Shown one piece after another: positions 52,747-61,408 of a stretch of DNA of 64,000 nt; positions within the stretch are counted from its first letter, which is position 1, and each line of letters opens with the position of its first letter. The DNA is from Armatimonadota bacterium. GTDB taxonomy: Bacteria; Armatimonadota; HRBIN16. The notes under the pieces were generated by a model. That model had not been told where the DNA came from. It saw nothing but the letters and a program-made list of their open reading frames with translations, and ran no database searches. The translations under genes and the position numbers were made by a program. The stretch covers positions 62,001 through 126,000 of the forward strand of contig BPGT01000001.1 in NCBI GenBank assembly GCA_026003175.1, given 5' to 3'.

Positions 52747-52887
52747 GGGATGGAAGTGACGCAGCGAGACCTGCAGGGGGATTGCTTCGCTGCTTCGTGA
52801 TTTGTGAGGAGTTCAACCTGTCATGCAGAAGCTGAAAATACCGCAGCAATCTCCCCTGTGGATACAATCACGCAGGTGGTGAGAGAG

Positions 52888-53466
52888 ATGGCTCTGCCAG
52901 AAGCACTTCGTTCACGGCTCACATGGGAACAATATGTGCAAACGCCCGAAAGCATGAAGCGCGTGGAGATTGAAGACGGTGAGGTAAAGCCGATGGCATC
53001 ACCCACGGGAAGACATCAACTGGTTCTGGGCAATCTGCATCTCATATTGGCTGGCAATTCCTTTGTTCGGGCACAGGGCATCGTGCTCATGGCGCCGTTC
53101 GACGTGGTGATTTCCCGCCGTCCTCTTCGAGTGCGCCAGCCTGACCTGCTGTATATCAGCAAACAACGCCTGCAGGCAGATGACCTCCGACCTCTACAGC
53201 GGCTGGAGATAGCTCCCGAACTGGTCGTGGAAGTGCTTTCACCCAGCGACACCTTTGTGCATCTGTCGCGCAAGCTGGCAGACTATCACCTTATCGGCGT
53301 GCAAGAGGTGTGGCTCGTGGATGCAGAGCAGAGTCAGGTGTTCCTGTTATCTCGCGAAGAACGAGGCTGGCACTGGCAAGGACCTCTGACGGGTGAAGAG
53401 GAGATACCCTCTGTCGTGCTACCCGAAGCACGGATTGCCGTCCAGACAATCTTTGAAGGAGGATAA
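52888..53466 (+). CDS. Uma2 family endonuclease-like protein (DUF820)
   Basis: The protein has 192 residues from ATG 52888 (GGTGAGAGAG upstream). It is a PD-(D/E)XK fold of the Uma2 family: MKRVEIEDGEVKPMASPTGR, VRQPDLLYISKQRL (the D), PELVVEVLSPSDT (the E), and LADYHLIGVQEVWLVDAEQS. These are abundant proteins of unclear function in many soil and aquatic bacteria. It lies upstream of a cupin gene by 3 bp. Confidence 0.85.
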   Translation: MALPEALRSRLTWEQYVQTPESMKRVEIEDGEVKPMASPTGRHQLVLGNLHLILAGNSFVRAQGIVLMAPFDVVISRRPLRVRQPDLLYISKQRLQADDLRPLQRLEIAPELVVEVLSPSDTFVHLSRKLADYHLIGVQEVWLVDAEQSQVFLLSREERGWHWQGPLTGEEEIPSVVLPEARIAVQTIFEGG

Positions 53467-53469
53467 GCG

Positions 53470-53817
53470 ATGCAGATACGTTCTTTTGACCCCAATGCGC
53501 TCTTTCCAGCGCATGAGGGCACTATACTCGCACAGGGCGTGTTCGCCTCCGAAGAGATAGGCGCGCCGTTCGGGTGCGCCTTCGGCGTTTTGAAGCCGGG
53601 TATGGCGCAGAAGCCCGAGCGCGTGCCTGTCGCCAAGCTCTACTACGTCCGCTACGGCGAGGCTACCCTGCGCATTGAGGACGAGGAACAGGTTATCCGC
53701 GAAGGGGATGTGGTCTTCATCCCTGCCAACGCCTGGCACACCGTGCGCAATCATACTGATAAGGACTTCAGCACCTTTGCCCTGTGGTGGACTCCCGCAG
53801 GAGGTGCAGAGCCATGA
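53470..53817 (+). CDS. Cupin domain protein
   Basis: The 115-residue protein has one cupin barrel: YYVRYGEATLRIEDEEQVIR, EGDVVFIPANAWHTVRNHTD. The first metal motif has only partial ligands, the second has His in AWHTV. It may bind a sugar-like ligand. Its stop overlaps the start of the oxidoreductase gene (ATGA), which suggests coupled translation and a shared pathway. Confidence 0.83.
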   Translation: MQIRSFDPNALFPAHEGTILAQGVFASEEIGAPFGCAFGVLKPGMAQKPERVPVAKLYYVRYGEATLRIEDEEQVIREGDVVFIPANAWHTVRNHTDKDFSTFALWWTPAGGAEP

Positions 53818-54848
53818 GCCAGCCGTTGCGTATCGGATTAGTTGGCTGTGGAGGCATCTCGCGGGCGCACGTGCACGCTATGCAGGAGCTGGGGGCGGAG
53901 ACGGTGCGCGTGGTCGCTACCTGTGACGTGGAAGAGGCTCTCGCGCAGGAGCGGGCGCGCGAATCGGGTGCGCAGGTTGTGCTCACCGACTGGCGTGAGG
54001 TGCTGAAGCGAGAAGATATCGACGCGGTAGACATCTGCTTGCCACATGACCTGCACGCGGAAGTAGCCATCGCCGCCGCGCAAGCGGGCAAGCATATTCT
54101 GGTAGAGAAACCGATAGCCACCACGCTGGAGGACGGCTGGGCGATGGTGCGTGCCGCCAGGCAGGCTGGTGTGGTGCTGATGACCGCTTTCGTGGAACGT
54201 TTTGAGGCGGAAAACTGGCGTACCAAACAGCTGCTGGATGAGGGCTGGCTCGGTGTGCCCGTTCTGGCGCAGCTGGACCACCTGCAGAACGTGGTCGTTC
54301 CGCCCGGGCACTGGGTGCGCAGCCGGCAAAGGTTGGGAGGAGGCGCCATTGCCAGCGCAGGCTGCCACCGCCTGGACCTGCTCCGCTGGTTCATCGGCGA
54401 GGTGGAATGGGTTTCTGCAGAAACTTACTACGACCCCGACCGCATGGAGGGCGAAGTGGCGGGTGTGGTCAACCTGCAGTTTACCACCGGCGCGATTGCC
54501 ACCATGAGCATCAGCTGGCTATCGCCCTATCGAGCCTTCTACCGCAAGCTGTGGCTTGAGGGTACGGAAGGAGCAATACACAACTGGAACGGCTTGCACG
54601 TCTTCTCGCGCAAGAAGCCCGAGTGGTCGGAAGGCTTTGTGAGGCTGGAGCTGGAGCCAGTGAACCCCTTCGCTGCCGAGATACGCCATTTTGTGCAGTG
54701 TGTGCACGAGGGTAAAGAGCCTCTCACCAGTGGAGAAGACTCGCTGCGTTCGCAGGCGGTGGCTATCGCCGCTAATGTGTCGGAGCAAACAGGGTGTCGT
54801 GTACGCCCTGCGGAACTACTCTCACAAGCACTGGAGGATTCGGAATGA
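53814..54848 (+). CDS. Gfo/Idh/MocA-family oxidoreductase
   Basis: The protein has 344 residues from ATG 53814. NAD(P)-binding Rossmann fold: RIGLVGCGGISRAHVHAMQE. The catalytic lysine motif HILVEKPIATTLEDGWAMVR is typical (EKP). The C-terminal domain reads GGAIASAGCHRLDLLRWFIG. The family oxidises sugars, inositols and related compounds. It is coupled with a cupin and a sulfatase-like gene, so probably works on a glycan breakdown product. Confidence 0.93.
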   Translation: MSQPLRIGLVGCGGISRAHVHAMQELGAETVRVVATCDVEEALAQERARESGAQVVLTDWREVLKREDIDAVDICLPHDLHAEVAIAAAQAGKHILVEKPIATTLEDGWAMVRAARQAGVVLMTAFVERFEAENWRTKQLLDEGWLGVPVLAQLDHLQNVVVPPGHWVRSRQRLGGGAIASAGCHRLDLLRWFIGEVEWVSAETYYDPDRMEGEVAGVVNLQFTTGAIATMSISWLSPYRAFYRKLWLEGTEGAIHNWNGLHVFSRKKPEWSEGFVRLELEPVNPFAAEIRHFVQCVHEGKEPLTSGEDSLRSQAVAIAANVSEQTGCRVRPAELLSQALEDSE

Positions 54849-56269
54849 AACCACTGAATATCGTGCTTTTCATCTCGGATACCTTCCGTCGTGATAACCT
54901 CACGATCCACGGTGGTAAGCAGATACACACGCCGTATCTGGACCGCTTCGCGCAAACCGCGCAGGTGTTCGAGCGAGCGTACTGCGGTTCGTTCCCAACG
55001 GTTCCCTCGCGCACGGACCTGTTTACGGGCAAGTGGACGTTTCCCCACCGCGACTGGTCACCCCTGCCGCGCGAGGAGAGGGTGCTGGCGCAACTGCTTT
55101 CCGAAGCAGGCTACACCACGATGATGATTATCGACACCCCGCACCTGCTGAACTATGGTTACCACTTTGATCGCGGCTTCACCGCCTTCGAGTGGATACG
55201 CGGACAGGAGAACGATCGCTGGCGCACCGATCCGGTGGAGGTGGAGTACCCCTTCAACCTGAACAAATGCCGGTTGGGCGAGCGTACCCTGCGTCAATAC
55301 CTGCGCAACGTTGCGGACCGCCGAAGCGAAGAGGACTATTTCCCCGCCCGCACAGTGAAAGCCACGATGCGCTGGCTGGAACGTAATGCGAAACAGAAGC
55401 CCTTCTTCCTGTATATCGACACCTTCGACCCGCATGAACCGTGGGACCCTCCACGACACTACACCGACCTGTATGACCCCGGCTACGAAGGCGAGGAGGT
55501 CATCTACCCGCAATACTGGTACTGGCGCGAGTTCCTCACCGAGGCGGAGCTAAACCACTGCCGCGCTCTCTACCGTGGGGAAGTGACGATGGTGGACTAC
55601 TGGTTCGGCAGGCTAATGGCGCGCTTGGAGAGCCTGAACCTGCTGGAAGACACGGTGGTCATCTTCACCGCCGACCACGGTTTCTACATCGGCGAGCACG
55701 GCATCATCGGCAAGGCGCTCTTCGAAGAGCGCGACGGCAAACACATCTTCCACCGCTCGCCTATCTACGACGAGGTAGCGCGCATCCCCCTGCTCATATA
55801 CGCGCCCGGCATGAAGCCCGCCACGCACGATGCCTTCACCGGCTTTGTAGACCTGATGCCCACCTTGCTGGAGCTGGCAGGTGTGGAGATACCTGTGGAG
55901 GTGCAGGGAAAGTCGCTCGTACCACTCTTACGCGGTGAACAAACAGGATGGCGCGACTTCTTTGTGACCTCGTGGGCGATCGTGCATCAGCCGGGCGAAA
56001 CCGTTAGCCGGGCGGTAGACGGAACCGAGCGCGTGGTGCTGTCGCCGCGCCCCTCTACGGTTCACGAACGCGATTGGACGCTCATCTACAGCGTCGCCGG
56101 CGATGAGGTGGAGCTGTACCATACTGCTACCGACCCAGGGCAGACGCAAAACGTGGCGGCGGAATATCCTGACGTAGCGCGCCGCTTGCACGCTAAGTTG
56201 CTGAATTTGCTGAAGGAGTGCGGCACGCGCGAGGAATACCTGCAACCGAGAAGGGAGATACAGGTGTAG
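54845..56269 (+). CDS. Sulfatase-like protein lacking the formylglycine residue
   Basis: The protein has 474 residues from ATG 54845, overlapping the oxidoreductase stop. Alkaline phosphatase superfamily marks: NIVLFISDTFRRDNLTIHGG, FFLYIDTFDPHEPWDPPRHY, and VVIFTADHGFYIGEHGIIGK. The nucleophile site, normally C/S-x-P-x-R, reads Thr52-V-P-S-R (SFPTVPSRTDLF). Cys47 is five residues earlier and unlikely to substitute. It may be inactive, use Thr, or hydrolyse something else. No signal peptide is present. Confidence 0.85.
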   Translation: MKPLNIVLFISDTFRRDNLTIHGGKQIHTPYLDRFAQTAQVFERAYCGSFPTVPSRTDLFTGKWTFPHRDWSPLPREERVLAQLLSEAGYTTMMIIDTPHLLNYGYHFDRGFTAFEWIRGQENDRWRTDPVEVEYPFNLNKCRLGERTLRQYLRNVADRRSEEDYFPARTVKATMRWLERNAKQKPFFLYIDTFDPHEPWDPPRHYTDLYDPGYEGEEVIYPQYWYWREFLTEAELNHCRALYRGEVTMVDYWFGRLMARLESLNLLEDTVVIFTADHGFYIGEHGIIGKALFEERDGKHIFHRSPIYDEVARIPLLIYAPGMKPATHDAFTGFVDLMPTLLELAGVEIPVEVQGKSLVPLLRGEQTGWRDFFVTSWAIVHQPGETVSRAVDGTERVVLSPRPSTVHERDWTLIYSVAGDEVELYHTATDPGQTQNVAAEYPDVARRLHAKLLNLLKECGTREEYLQPRREIQV

Positions 56270-56307: not shown

Positions 56308-56934
56308 ATGGCACAACAAACGCTCATACCACCCGCACGCCCGTTGCCCAGAGGCAAAGTCAGCTATGAACAGTTCCTGGAGTGGCTGGACGAAGACACC
56401 TGGGCAGAGTGGGTGGACGGCGAGGTAGAACTGATGAGTCCAATATCTTTGCTGCATCAGGAGGTTAGCAGATTCCTGATAGCCATCCTGCAGTTTTACA
56501 TTACCTACCACGACCTGGGTGGGCTTCATCACGAGCCTTTCCAGATGAAGACGGGACGCGACCTTCCCGGTCGCTCGCCAGACATCCTGTTCGTGAGCAG
56601 AGAAAACCAGCATCGCCTGAAGCCCACCTATCTGGATGGACCTGCCGACCTGGTGGTGGAAATTATCAGCCCCGATAGCGAAGAACGCGACCGCGTGCAG
56701 AAGTTTGCCGAATACCAGCAGGGCGGTGTGCGCGAATACTGGTTGATAGACCCTCAGAAGCGAGAGGCGGAGTTCTACGTGCTGGACGAAGCGGGGATGT
56801 ATGCGCTGCAGGCGAAGGGCGGTTCGGGTGAGTATCGGAGTAAGGTACTGGAAGGTTTATGGCTGAGGATAGAGTGGTTGTGGAACCCGCCGCCGGAGAT
56901 CGAGGTGCTCAAGGAGTGGGGAATGGTGTCGTAA
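56308..56934 (+). CDS. Uma2 family endonuclease-like protein (DUF820)
   Basis: The 208-residue protein is PD-(D/E)XK-like: YEQFLEWLDEDTWAEWVDGE, GRSPDILFVSREN, ADLVVEIISPDSEERDRVQK, and KFAEYQQGGVREYWLIDPQK. It is better conserved than the one at 52888. A TATAAT at 56284 may belong to its promoter. It sits between the sulfatase-like and sialidase-like genes. Confidence 0.88.
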   Translation: MAQQTLIPPARPLPRGKVSYEQFLEWLDEDTWAEWVDGEVELMSPISLLHQEVSRFLIAILQFYITYHDLGGLHHEPFQMKTGRDLPGRSPDILFVSRENQHRLKPTYLDGPADLVVEIISPDSEERDRVQKFAEYQQGGVREYWLIDPQKREAEFYVLDEAGMYALQAKGGSGEYRSKVLEGLWLRIEWLWNPPPEIEVLKEWGMVS

Positions 56935-56956: not shown

Positions 56957-58078
56957 ATGTTGCTTTTTCTGCCTTTGCTGAGCATGCACGAGACAGTTAC
57001 TGCGGATGCCCGCTGGGTGCATCCGCTCTTCCAGCCGCTGGAGGTCTCCAACAGCGGTCCGTTCGTGATTCTAGAGGATGGTAGCCTTGGCACGGTAGAC
57101 GAAAAAGGCTTCCGCATCAGCAAAGATGACGGCAAAACGTGGTCGGAACCGATTCCCGTCTGCGAAGGTATCAACCCTAAGGAGCCTGCTTCGTATTATC
57201 TGCTGCGCACGCAGAAGGGCACGCTGGTCATGATATACCTGAACTTTACAGGACGTCGCTTCGAGTGGGACGAGGCACGCAAGGAGCCGAAAGAGGGATG
57301 CCGGCTGGAGGTATGGGCAATCCGCAGCACCGACGGCGGCAAAACGTGGACGGACAACCAGTGTGTCCTGGACGGCTACAACCCCAACTTCTTCGCGCTG
57401 ATTCAGACCCGCTCAGGCAGAATCGTCGCTCCGCTGCAGCATCTCGCCAGCAACCCGGGACGCCTCATCACCTGCTCGGTGTACTCCGACGACGAAGGCA
57501 AGACGTGGCGGCGCAGCAACTGGATTGACCTCGGCGGGCATGGACACCACGACGGCGCGTTTGAACCCACCCTTGCCGAGCTGAGCGATGGACGCTTGCT
57601 CATGTTGATACGCACCAGCTTGGACCAGTTCTGGCAAGCAGTCTCTACGGATGGCGGCAGGTACTGGCGTATCATCCAGCCCAGCGGAATCGACGCCAGC
57701 AACTCGCCCGGATACCTGTTGCGCCTGCAAAGTGGTCGGCTGGTGCTGGTGTGGAACCGCTTGCACCCCGAAGGGCGAGTGTGGGAAAAGTCAGACTGGA
57801 AACAGCACACCGAGCTTCCCTCTTCGTGGCACCGCGAGGAGCTGTCTATCGCCTTCTCGGAAGATGACGGCAAGACGTGGACGAAGCCCATCACCTTCGC
57901 CAGGCAGCGCGGCGGGCAGCTGAGCTACCCGTACCTCTTCGAACGCCGTCCGGGCGAGCTGTGGGTCATCGCGGGCTTCGCCTTCCAGAAGTTCTGGGAA
58001 GAGCCTTTGCCCCTGCGTCTGAAGGTGGACGAAGAGCAGCTGGTGCGCGAGGCGAAACGGTTACAACCAGCACGTTGA
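56957..58078 (+). CDS. Sialidase-like BNR/Asp-box protein
   Basis: The 373-residue protein has Asp boxes RISKDDGKTW, RSTDGGKTW, YSDDEGKTW, STDGGRYW and FSEDDGKTW. An N-terminal MLLFLPLLSMHE gives only a weak hydrophobic start; no clear signal peptide. It differs from the 43040 protein, so the two probably act on different sugars. GGAGGTGACACCAAG precedes its ATG. A 189-bp spacer to the next gene has no further gene; 58216-58240 looks like a dispersed repeat. Confidence 0.82.
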   Translation: MLLFLPLLSMHETVTADARWVHPLFQPLEVSNSGPFVILEDGSLGTVDEKGFRISKDDGKTWSEPIPVCEGINPKEPASYYLLRTQKGTLVMIYLNFTGRRFEWDEARKEPKEGCRLEVWAIRSTDGGKTWTDNQCVLDGYNPNFFALIQTRSGRIVAPLQHLASNPGRLITCSVYSDDEGKTWRRSNWIDLGGHGHHDGAFEPTLAELSDGRLLMLIRTSLDQFWQAVSTDGGRYWRIIQPSGIDASNSPGYLLRLQSGRLVLVWNRLHPEGRVWEKSDWKQHTELPSSWHREELSIAFSEDDGKTWTKPITFARQRGGQLSYPYLFERRPGELWVIAGFAFQKFWEEPLPLRLKVDEEQLVREAKRLQPAR

Positions 58079-58267: not shown

Positions 58268-61200
58268 ATGCGCTATCCCGTTCTGATAGCAGCTTTACTG
58301 GGCTGTTTGCCACTCTCCGCCCAGCAGACCGTTACCGGTCCCGTCACCATCTACGATACCACCTACGAACGTGTAGACCCCGGCTTGCCCTTCACCGAAG
58401 CACCCCGGCAGGAGGAGAACTGGCAGCCGCCTTCCCCATTGCCAGCAGAAAGCAAAGCAGGACTCATTCCCTTTTCGCGCCCTGAGCCGTTCGATATCAA
58501 ACCCTGGAGCAAGCCCAAAGACACCGAACGTCTCCGCGAACTGCGCTGCTATGCGGCACAGGGGGAAATCTCTGCAATCTGGTTTGCGGTATACGCGCTG
58601 GAGCCGTTGAGAAGCCTGCAAGTGTATGACGATGCAAGGGGTATGGCAGCTGATACCGCATCGAAGATCTCGCTGGACATTCGATATGCGCACTTCTGGG
58701 CGCAACGCACCGATTGGCGAGGGCGCACCTACTATGTCACCCCAGAACTGATACTGCCTATGCGGGATGGCAGGGCGCAGTTTCCCGCAAAAGGAGGTAC
58801 GCTGGAGTGGCGTTCACTGGACATTCCGCAAGGTGAAAGCCGCCTGTTCTGGATACAGGTGCGAGTGCTGCCAGACTGTCGCCCGGGCACATACACCAGA
58901 ACTATTGTCATCCGGTCGGAGGGCAGAGAGGCTCTCCGCTTGCCCTTGCGCATTCACGTCTACCCCTTCCGCCTGAACAAACCGCCCGACAAACGCTGGC
59001 TGCTGTACAGTGATAGCTGGTGGCTGAGCAACCTGCCTGACGACAAACTGCTCGCCTTGCTCAAGGAGATAGCCGACTACGGCATCGACGGGCTGACGGA
59101 GCTACCTTTTGGCAAGCTCGACCTTTCCGAGCTGAAGCAGGGAAGGGTGCGCTATGATCCGGCTCCCTTGCTGCGCTGGTATCGGCTGATGCGGCAAGCA
59201 GGCTTGCGTGGACCGCACACCATTGGCACGTTCATCGAGGAGCAGATACCTGCTCAGCTGGGCATCCAGGCTGATGTGAACCGCGAGTGGACACCGCCCG
59301 TGCGCGAGGCGATGCGCCAGATCGCCCGAACGGTCATCCAGACGCTTCAGCCGCACCGTATTCCCTGGATGTTCTATGGGTGGGACGAACCGGGTCCCGA
59401 GACTATCCGTGCGTTGGAACAGTACCGCACCTGGCGTGAAGCAGGCGCAGACACCTACGTCACCTTCTACCAGCGCGGCACCTACGAGGCTGCAGCGCAG
59501 TGGATGACCCACCCCTGTTTCTCCGTCGGGCTGGTCACCTCTCAGCAGACTGCACAATGGGCTCTCGAACAGTGTCAGGCGCGTGGGCAAAAGTTCTACT
59601 GGTACGGCAGCGGCTGCTATCTGGGGCAGGAAGGACGAATGTTCCCCAATCGCTTCCTGGCAGGATGGCTGTTCTGGAAGACAAAGGCGGACGGACAGGT
59701 GTCGTGGACTTTCGTGCGACCCCACGAAGACCCCTTCAACGACTTCGATGGCGCCACCGTCAACAGTGTGGAACCCAAAGACCAGTGCACCGTGTATCCC
59801 GAGCTTGCCTCGCCGAACGACCCCAAAAGCATCCAGCGCATCATTCCTACCATCCAGTGGGAGGCATTGCGCGAGGGCATCAATGACTACCGCTACCTGG
59901 CCACCCTGCGAAACACCATCGCCTATGCACGCAAAGTGGCTTCTGCCTCCAGAGCCAGCCGCTGGTCGCGAGAACTGCTCCAGTTCGCCGACGAGTGTGA
60001 AAGCATCCTGAAGGCGATGGACGCATCTGTACCCTGGTCTAATGAGGTCGCAAGAGCAGGCTTTACCAACGCCGACCTGAAGGAAGCGCGGCTCATCGTG
60101 GGCAGGTGCATCGAGAAACTGGTGCTGCTGCTGCGGGGGGAGCGCGTTGCCTCTGCCAAACAGGCGCGAGCGGTTACCCTGCGCGTGCGAGTTGTTCCGC
60201 CTGTTTCCTATCCCATCTCTTCCACATACCTGCCGGTGCTGACCCTGCCACGCTGGAGCCAGCCCCCTGTGATCGACGGCAGGCTGGATGAACCGCAGTG
60301 GGAGATTGCCGCAGTCGCCGCGCCGTTCTATGAAAGCAACAGCAGCGTGCCTATACCAAAGAACCTGAGCACGCAGGCGATGCTGGCGGTAGACCAAAAC
60401 GCACTGTACATCGGCTTCCGCTGCCGCGCCCCACGTCCCCAGTTGCTGGTAGCGGAACAAACGCGCCGCGACGCCGACGGCATCTGGCTGGACGAGAGTG
60501 TGGAGATATTCCTTGCCTCGCCCGATGCTCCCGACCGCTACGCGCACTTCATCATCAACGTGCGAGGCGCGGTCTACGACGAACTGGGCTTCGACGTAGG
60601 CTGGAACACCGAGATTCAGGCATCCGCGCACACTGACTCCGAGGGCTGGACGTTGGAAGCGGCTATCCCCTGGCGTTCTTTGCCCTTCAAGGTCAACCTG
60701 AATCAACAGGGTGAGCCGCTCCTTCGCCTGAACCTCGGACGCAACCATAAAGAGCGGGGGGCGGCGGGAACGTCCCACTGGGCATGGTCACCCACCTTCG
60801 GCTGGTTCCACAATCCGCAGCGATTCGGCATCGCCACGCCCCAGCAGGGCGATATTCTGGTCAAGGAGGTCATGCCACCTGCCTATGTGGACGACTCTCC
60901 CATACAGATCACGCTGGTCAACCTTGGGCAGCAGGCACAGTCGGTGGAGGTGAAAGGACGGCGCGTAACTGTAGCTGCCGGACAACAGATCCGGGTAATC
61001 ATCCCCTCCAGTACCGAGCCTGGTGAACACCTGGAAACCGTTCGCCTGCGCTGGCAAAATGGGCTACTGGATATACCTGTGGCGTATTCTATCCCGTATC
61101 CTGTTCAGATGATGAAACAGGTAGCTGTAGCAGCCGGATCCAAGGCTTCTCTCACCACCGCCTTCGCCGTGCGCCACACAGAGGGCAAGTGGTTGCGGGT

Positions 61201-61408
61201 TCGGGTCACCAGCGCAGGGTTCGAGAAGGAGAGCACTTTCCCAGCCTCGCGCGACTTCACCCTGCGCTTACCCGGCGTGCGCGAGGACAGGTTGAATGTC
61301 CAAATCGCCCTGGACAAATCGCCCCGGTGGGCAGGTTCTGCGGTCGTTTACATACTGCCTGAGCCTGTACAGAGGGCAAGCCTTATCCCCACGAAGAGCG
61401 GTAGATGA
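58268..61408 (+). CDS. DUF4091 glycoside hydrolase-like protein with CBM9-type C-terminal domain
   Basis: The 1046-residue secreted protein has a signal peptide (MRYPVLIAALLGCLPLSAQQ). A beta domain (about 90-230) is followed by a GH-like barrel with DUF4091 signatures: WMFYGWDEPGPETIRALEQY, HPCFSVGLVTSQQTAQWALE, WLFWKTKADGQVSWTF, and WEALREGINDYRYLATL. A CBM9-like domain (about 665-855) reads VIDGRLDEPQWEIAAVAAPF and LYIGFRCRAPRP, then SVEIFLASP. Further beta-sandwiches end it. The family relates to GH123-type hexosaminidases. Confidence 0.86.
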   Translation: MRYPVLIAALLGCLPLSAQQTVTGPVTIYDTTYERVDPGLPFTEAPRQEENWQPPSPLPAESKAGLIPFSRPEPFDIKPWSKPKDTERLRELRCYAAQGEISAIWFAVYALEPLRSLQVYDDARGMAADTASKISLDIRYAHFWAQRTDWRGRTYYVTPELILPMRDGRAQFPAKGGTLEWRSLDIPQGESRLFWIQVRVLPDCRPGTYTRTIVIRSEGREALRLPLRIHVYPFRLNKPPDKRWLLYSDSWWLSNLPDDKLLALLKEIADYGIDGLTELPFGKLDLSELKQGRVRYDPAPLLRWYRLMRQAGLRGPHTIGTFIEEQIPAQLGIQADVNREWTPPVREAMRQIARTVIQTLQPHRIPWMFYGWDEPGPETIRALEQYRTWREAGADTYVTFYQRGTYEAAAQWMTHPCFSVGLVTSQQTAQWALEQCQARGQKFYWYGSGCYLGQEGRMFPNRFLAGWLFWKTKADGQVSWTFVRPHEDPFNDFDGATVNSVEPKDQCTVYPELASPNDPKSIQRIIPTIQWEALREGINDYRYLATLRNTIAYARKVASASRASRWSRELLQFADECESILKAMDASVPWSNEVARAGFTNADLKEARLIVGRCIEKLVLLLRGERVASAKQARAVTLRVRVVPPVSYPISSTYLPVLTLPRWSQPPVIDGRLDEPQWEIAAVAAPFYESNSSVPIPKNLSTQAMLAVDQNALYIGFRCRAPRPQLLVAEQTRRDADGIWLDESVEIFLASPDAPDRYAHFIINVRGAVYDELGFDVGWNTEIQASAHTDSEGWTLEAAIPWRSLPFKVNLNQQGEPLLRLNLGRNHKERGAAGTSHWAWSPTFGWFHNPQRFGIATPQQGDILVKEVMPPAYVDDSPIQITLVNLGQQAQSVEVKGRRVTVAAGQQIRVIIPSSTEPGEHLETVRLRWQNGLLDIPVAYSIPYPVQMMKQVAVAAGSKASLTTAFAVRHTEGKWLRVRVTSAGFEKESTFPASRDFTLRLPGVREDRLNVQIALDKSPRWAGSAVVYILPEPVQRASLIPTKSGR

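What the first reader, a model, noticed from the sequence alone, without database searches (positions are those of the whole stretch)
54845..56269. Sulfatase-like protein with Thr in place of the catalytic Cys/Ser
The position of the formylglycine precursor reads T-V-P-S-R (Thr52). The other metal-binding parts look intact. Known: sulfatases need Cys or Ser here for conversion. Alkaline phosphatase relatives use Thr or Ser, so it may be a phosphoesterase or phosphonate hydrolase.
Basis: partly seen in the sequence, partly recalled or inferred. Interest (0 to 1): 0.5.

Follow-up and report, generated by a model that had tools for sequence, protein, structure and literature searches.

The report
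Sulfatase-fold enzyme with threonine nucleophile
This gene encodes a member of a widespread, apparently undescribed branch of sulfatase-like enzymes in bacteria and archaea whose catalytic cysteine, normally converted to formylglycine by a helper enzyme, is a plain threonine, so it is probably a phosphoester- or phosphonate-cleaving enzyme that needs no helper.

Summary
The 474-aa product of 54845-56269 (+) is a confident S1-sulfatase/PMH fold (pLDDT 93), and Thr52 (ACG, 54998-55000) aligns with the formylglycine Cys (C57 of RlPMH). It is no accident: Thr is in the slot in 78 of 80 best homologues elsewhere (2 truncated), and the gene is under strong purifying selection. The family (T-x-P-x-R, D97, FDPHEPW) spans many bacterial phyla and archaea. 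In its clade (90 rows: 75 Thr, 14 Cys, 1 Ser) the only catalytic column separating Thr from Cys is the nucleophile. The window's genome has no anSME over cut-off and no FGE-like protein seen with the FGE cysteine pair. Ten more genomes without either maturase hold 48 PF00884 proteins, none with Cys; all 12 genomes of the Cys sub-clade have a maturase. Two relatives (G029, G053) break the rule: Cys-type genes, no detected maturase. Most likely a cytoplasmic one-metal phosphodiesterase/phosphonate-type hydrolase with an encoded Thr nucleophile; reaction and substrate are inferred. A general Thr-for-Cys note exists (SulfAtlas paper); this branch was not found in print.

The parts
54845..56269 (+). 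Thr-type sulfatase-fold hydrolase, 474 aa (P0001)
54998..55012 (+). T52-V-P-S-R56: nucleophile slot; codon 52 is ACG (54998-55000)
54878..54880 (+). Asp12, predicted metal ligand (RlPMH D12)
   Evidence: 90 of 90 rows
55133..55135 (+). Asp97, in place of the catalytic Lys of GKWH (Tyr105 in RlPMH)
   Evidence: 89 of 90 rows
55424..55444 (+). F194-D-P-H-E-P-W200; His197 = RlPMH H218 (general-acid histidine)
55673..55678 (+). Asp277-His278, predicted metal ligands (RlPMH D324, H325)
   Evidence: 90 of 90 rows
55712..55714 (+). Lys290 (RlPMH K337)
   Evidence: 88 of 90 rows
53784..54848 (+). Gfo/Idh/MocA oxidoreductase; its stop overlaps the ATG of the hydrolase by four bases, so probably co-translated
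   Evidence: same neighbour in the genus loci

Best explanation
P0001 is a cytoplasmic, metal-dependent hydrolase of the S1-sulfatase/phosphonate-monoester-hydrolase fold that uses an encoded, unmodified Thr52 where its kin use formylglycine. Proposed mechanism. (1) Asp12, Asp277, His278 and Thr52 hold one divalent metal. (2) Metal-activated Thr52 attacks the phosphorus of a phosphodiester or phosphonate monoester, while His197/Lys290 protonate the leaving alcohol and Arg56 holds the nucleophile loop. (3) The phospho-Thr intermediate is hydrolysed by water at phosphorus, as in alkaline phosphatase and NPP (recalled), because Thr cannot eject the group by hemiacetal collapse as formylglycine does. 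Shown: fold, alignment of residues, conservation, lack of detected maturases in this genome. Inferred: metal, nucleophilic role, reaction, substrate (unknown; perhaps a sugar- or polyol-linked phosphoester, from the abutting Gfo/Idh gene, a weak hint).
For: Model pLDDT 93.1, pTM 0.93; top structural matches are S1 sulfatases and PMHs. hhalign to RlPMH plus 15 classical sulfatases: probability 100, E 1.8e-79. Residue map RlPMH to P0001: D12-D12, C57-T52, R61-R56, H218-H197, D324-D277, H325-H278, K337-K290. Lys at column 97: 0 of 83 Thr rows, 15 of 32 Cys rows. Window genome: the only two PF00884 rows both have Thr in the slot, no anSME over cut-off, no FGE cysteine pair seen. Ten other maturase-free genomes: 0 Cys in 48 PF00884 proteins, 45 with Thr in the slot, 3 remote NPP-like. 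Soluble: the whole chain aligns with soluble enzymes.
Against: No activity data. Cys-to-Ser variants of both sulfatases and PMHs keep about a tenth of activity on sulfates and phosphoesters alike (PMC5488252), so the nucleophile does not fix the reaction. Asp97 puts a negative charge where kin use Lys or Tyr; its role is unexplained. Within the clade, Cys enzymes have the same other catalytic residues, so the substrate class could be shared and could be sulfate. The neighbourhood gives no substrate: among 107 adjacent ORFs no family but those of sulfatase paralogues recurs in more than 3. Two related genomes break the maturase rule.
Confidence: 0.58

Rival explanations
1. A true sulfatase that works with an unmodified Thr nucleophile, slower but maturase-free.
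For: Same fold; Cys sub-clade has identical other catalytic residues; fGly-to-Ser variants lose only about tenfold on average on all substrates (PMC5488252).
Against: Catalytic Lys of GKWH is Asp97; SmCS K102L and EfAS K110A, at that Lys, abolish measurable activity (passages of PMC5870055, and PMC12421950). Metal set is PMH-like.
Confidence: 0.14
2. A phosphotransferase or mutase: phospho-Thr is passed to another alcohol, as in phosphopentomutase or the LtaS/EptA branch.
For: These Thr enzymes belong to the same superfamily (recalled; weak NCBIfam hit to LtaS, 30 bits). Strongly conserved carboxylates D97, D195, E198 could bind an acceptor.
Against: No membrane part; the chain aligns end to end with soluble hydrolases. 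Best kin are hydrolases.
Confidence: 0.12
3. A catalytically dead relative kept for binding or regulation.
For: Loss of the modifiable residue and of the catalytic Lys.
Against: Metal ligands, R56, H197 and K290 kept in 88-90 of 90 rows; Thr, Cys or Ser, never Ala or Gly, in the slot; dN/dS 0.05-0.09; up to 14-15 PF00884 rows in one maturase-free archaeal genome.
Confidence: 0.08
4. Thr52 is itself oxidised (to a ketone) by an unknown maturase and acts like formylglycine.
For: The motif keeps the P-x-R of the maturase recognition sequence.
Against: No known maturase detected in this genome or in ten others. The SulfAtlas authors note that Thr oxidation would give a ketone and that formylglycine from Thr has never been shown (PMC5066984, passage).
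Confidence: 0.03

Closest known systems
Phosphonate monoester hydrolase / PehA (RlPMH, 2vqr; SulfAtlas S1_0)
   Same: Fold, D12, R61, H218, D324, H325, K337 all matched; His as metal ligand; no GKWH Lys.
   Different: Nucleophile Cys/fGly57 is Thr52; Tyr105 is Asp97; PehA model scores 131.7 against a cut-off of 900.
Formylglycine sulfatases, family S1
   Same: Fold and PF00884 (158.6 bits); x-P-x-R after the slot; His and Lys of the leaving-group pair.
   Different: No Cys/Ser in the slot, no D-D pair, no GKWH Lys, no detected maturase in the genome.
Thr-nucleophile members of the superfamily (NPP, PPM, LtaS/EptA)
   Same: Thr as metal-bound nucleophile (their role recalled; TXNXE proteins noted in PMC5066984).
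   Different: Different motif (T-x-P-x-R with the sulfatase Arg), soluble S1/PMH architecture, one predicted metal.
S-x-P-C-M-P-A-R / FDPHEPF 'sulfatases' (e.g. on Rhizobium plasmids, WP_020053069.1)
   Same: Same clade, same catalytic columns.
   Different: Cys in the slot; all 12 genomes examined have a maturase.

Membership tests
Pfam PF00884 (Sulfatase) | Score over the gathering cut-off | tested here: met
   158.6 bits against 25
S1 formylglycine sulfatase | C/S-x-P/A-x-R | tested here: not met
   T-V-P-S-R
S1 formylglycine sulfatase | Formylglycine maturase in the genome | tested here: not met
   No TIGR03942 hit over cut-off in G000; of its two PF03781 proteins one lacks the FGE cysteine pair, the other matches only profile positions 11-141 and was not read there. 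97% complete genome.
S1 formylglycine sulfatase | Catalytic Lys of GKWH | tested here: not met
   Asp97
S1 formylglycine sulfatase | Fold | tested here: met
   (Z 31-37 for the 50 entries listed)
Phosphonate monoester hydrolase (PehA) | fGly nucleophile from Cys57 | tested here: not met
   Thr52
Phosphonate monoester hydrolase (PehA) | D12, D324, H325, R61, H218, K337 | tested here: met
   all six matched
Phosphonate monoester hydrolase (PehA) | NCBIfam equivalog cut-off | tested here: not met
   131.7 against 900 bits
Alkaline phosphatase / NPP type | Thr or Ser nucleophile | tested here: inconclusive
   Thr in the slot by alignment; role not shown
Alkaline phosphatase / NPP type | Two metal sites | not testable with these tools
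   Model coordinates and ions not available
LtaS / EptA / YejM transferases | N-terminal membrane part | tested here: not met
   Chain starts with the first strand of the fold (residue 5) and aligns to RlPMH over residues 1-470

The most novel reading that the evidence does not exclude
The FDPHEP clade is a natural nucleophile-swap series: one sulfatase-type active site, unchanged at its other catalytic residues, runs either on an encoded Thr (maturase-free genomes, archaea included) or on Cys/formylglycine (only beside a maturase), and the Cys form arose anew from Thr ancestors. That would show formylglycine being regained, and that hydroxyl and aldehyde-hydrate nucleophiles are interchangeable in evolution.
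Probability: 0.3. Interest if true: 0.72.

Novelty: new variant of a known kind. Interest (0 to 1): 0.52.

Why it matters
Databases call these proteins sulfatases. If the reading is right, a large group across bacteria and archaea is misnamed, sulfatase counts in such genomes are inflated, and there is a natural set of near-identical active sites that differ at the nucleophile. That makes the open question of what formylglycine adds over a plain hydroxyl testable with natural pairs (for example Thr-type WP_236953515.1 of Martelella mediterranea against Cys-type WP_020053069.1 of Rhizobium).

Tried and rejected
Cys47 as nucleophile: rejected, not conserved. Substrate from gene neighbours: 17 of 100 loci carry a Gfo/Idh within the stretch read, 7 of them the window and its genus copies; no other strong partner; a Pfam scan of 107 of 120 adjacent ORFs gave only sulfatase paralogues as recurrent (10 of 107). 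The largest non-sulfatase cluster (73 loci) looks like antisense ORFs over the gene itself: all 20 members printed of 102 are on the opposite strand and overlap it.

Rule 'no maturase, then no Cys': it holds in the window's genome and ten others but fails in G029 (one contig, 99% complete) and G053, which have Cys-type sulfatases with no anSME over cut-off and no FGE cysteine pair found. It is a trend, not a law. G068 has a truncated sub-cut-off radical-SAM hit (123 bits), so its lack of anSME is not sure; completeness of G061-G070 is not given.

Direction of the swap: the rooted tree nests the 14 Cys rows inside Thr, but the AU test does not reject one Thr clade (p 0.109), so it is unproven.

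Whether Asp97 sits at the Lys or the His position depends on the alignment: MAFFT puts it at the Lys/Tyr105 position, phmmer against 4uph puts it at the Asp of T-D-T. No coordinates were available to decide.

Rows left out: the tree used 116 chosen rows and dropped near copies L001-L007, L009, L018 and most rows; 30 of 78 rows were read. Neighbour scan: 20 near-duplicate loci were skipped, and 13 of its 120 ORFs were not passed. The homologue sets were found by similarity to a Thr query, and the 80 loci by the pattern FDPHEPW, so their Thr share is biased upward.

Literature: ten searches found the general Thr remark only in PMC5066984 (passages); the library is open-access only.

Full report
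What is there. The ORF 54845-56269 (+) encodes 474 aa. It scores 158.6 bits for PF00884 and 58 bits for SGSH_C. No NCBIfam equivalog cut-off is reached: PRK13759 arylsulfatase 166 of 481, PehA 131.7 of 900. AlphaFold2 on alignment A1 (26 rows) gives mean pLDDT 93.1 and pTM 0.93. Structural neighbours are S1 sulfatases and phosphonate monoester hydrolases (6hr5 Z 37.2, rmsd 2.4 over 349; PMH 4uph Z 34.1, rmsd 3.3 over 407).

The slot. RlPMH, read from plasmid record NC_008379, has D12, Q13, C57, R61, N78, Y105, T107, H218, D324, H325 and K337 where expected. Aligned with P0001 these fall on D12, T13, T52, R56, D70, D97, P99, H197, D277, H278 and K290. So the metal ligands, the Arg and the His/Lys leaving-group pair are kept. 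The Cys is Thr. The Lys of classical sulfatases (Tyr in PMHs; passage in PMC5488252) is Asp.

Conservation. In A1 Thr52 is invariant in 26 of 26 rows. Of 80 loci from named genomes, the best ORF has Thr in 78 and does not reach the slot in 2. The 7 Cys seen there belong to other, ordinary sulfatases lying nearby. The 80 include Armatimonadota, Zipacnadia, Planctomycetota, Poribacteria, Chloroflexota, Omnitrophota and Latescibacterota, and the archaeal groups Bathyarchaeota, Brockarchaeota, Caldivirga and Lokiarchaeota (record titles). One contig (66,135 bases) has the same length as G001:C71 of the window's genus and is titled Chthonomonadia, so the window probably comes from that class. dN/dS against five genus orthologues is 0.05-0.09; a sixth, more distant pair was saturated.

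Clade and swap. In a tree of 116 chosen rows the FDPHEP group is one side of a starred branch (90 rows: Thr 75, Cys 14, Ser 1). Inside it D12, R56, H197, E198, D277 and H278 are in 90 of 90 rows, D97 in 89 and K290 in 88. Column 52 is the only catalytic column that separates Thr from Cys; seven other columns differ at the 70% threshold, three of them in one helix (245, 246, 257), none a known catalytic residue. On the rooted tree the Cys rows lie inside the Thr rows, but one Thr clade is not rejected (AU p 0.109). Lys at column 97 is in 15 of 32 Cys rows and 0 of 83 Thr rows.

Maturases. In the genus (10 genomes) anSME passes its cut-off in G001, G005 and G008 only, and these are the three with Cys-type sulfatase genes. 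Full-length PF03781 proteins of the genus lack the FGE cysteine pair (13 of 18 rows, L094-L106). The other five rows (L107-L111) match only the first half of the profile and were not read at that site. Of 36 further genomes with a Thr protein (a 37th was not held), 20 have anSME over cut-off and 21 have PF03781; ten (G061-G070) have neither. All 49 PF00884 rows of those ten, 48 proteins, were read: 45 have Thr in the slot, 3 are remote NPP-like, none has Cys. As a control, five anSME-positive genomes gave 19 Cys and 11 Thr among 30 of 78 rows read. All 12 genomes that carry the Cys sub-clade have a maturase: 9 anSME, 3 FGE with the cysteine pair. Against: G029 and G053 have Cys-type sulfatases and no maturase that I could find.

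Working. The best reading is a soluble one-metal hydrolase with a Thr nucleophile acting on phosphodiester or phosphonate-type esters. Formylglycine releases sulfate by hemiacetal collapse (PMC5870055 passage); Thr cannot, so its intermediate must be hydrolysed at the central atom, which is known for phospho-Ser/Thr (recalled). That argument favours phosphorus. It is weakened by the finding that fGly-to-Ser variants of five sulfatases and four PMHs lose only about tenfold on average for sulfate and phosphate substrates alike (PMC5488252, section 8 read).

Context. The Gfo/Idh gene 53784-54848 overlaps the start by four bases. BNR-repeat (56957-58078) and CBM9 (58268-61408) proteins follow. Outside the genus this setting is not kept, so it names no substrate.

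Known or new. Thr-bearing PF00884 proteins are known in general: the SulfAtlas paper counts Thr in 30 of 59 seed proteins, speaks of TXNXE proteins and excludes them (PMC5066984, passages). Ten searches of an open-access library did not turn up a description of the T-x-P-x-R, FDPHEPW branch. A cultured Thr-type member exists on a Martelella mediterranea plasmid (WP_236953515.1).

Noticed in passing
G029 (single contig, 99% complete), L359; also G053, L356: Cys-type (and in G053 Ser-type) sulfatase genes in genomes with no anSME over cut-off and no FGE cysteine pair found: either an unknown maturase or unmodified enzymes.
   Followed up: partly
L249-L252, L254, L259-L261, L267, L268, L278 and others in G061-G070: Other Thr-type PF00884 groups in archaea, with T-x-P-x-F/Y/W/H and T-x-G-A-R motifs and mostly WDPH instead of FDPHEP; G062 has 14 and G063 15 PF00884 matches.
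   Followed up: partly
L367 and L372 (Rhizobium leguminosarum plasmids): The Cys-type relative follows a LysR regulator and a sugar ABC transporter, with genes annotated as caspase family proteins close by.
   Followed up: no
L094-L097 in the window's genus: A 242-aa FGE-like protein with GGCW in place of the FGE cysteine-pair segment; role unknown.
   Followed up: no
window 56308-56934: A Uma2-family (PF05685) gene lies between the hydrolase and the BNR-repeat gene; 52804-53466 looks similar by eye but was not scanned.
   Followed up: no
L052, slot P-S-V-P-C-R: A single Ser-type member within the Thr clade, sister to a Thr row: a possible step between Thr and Cys.
   Followed up: no
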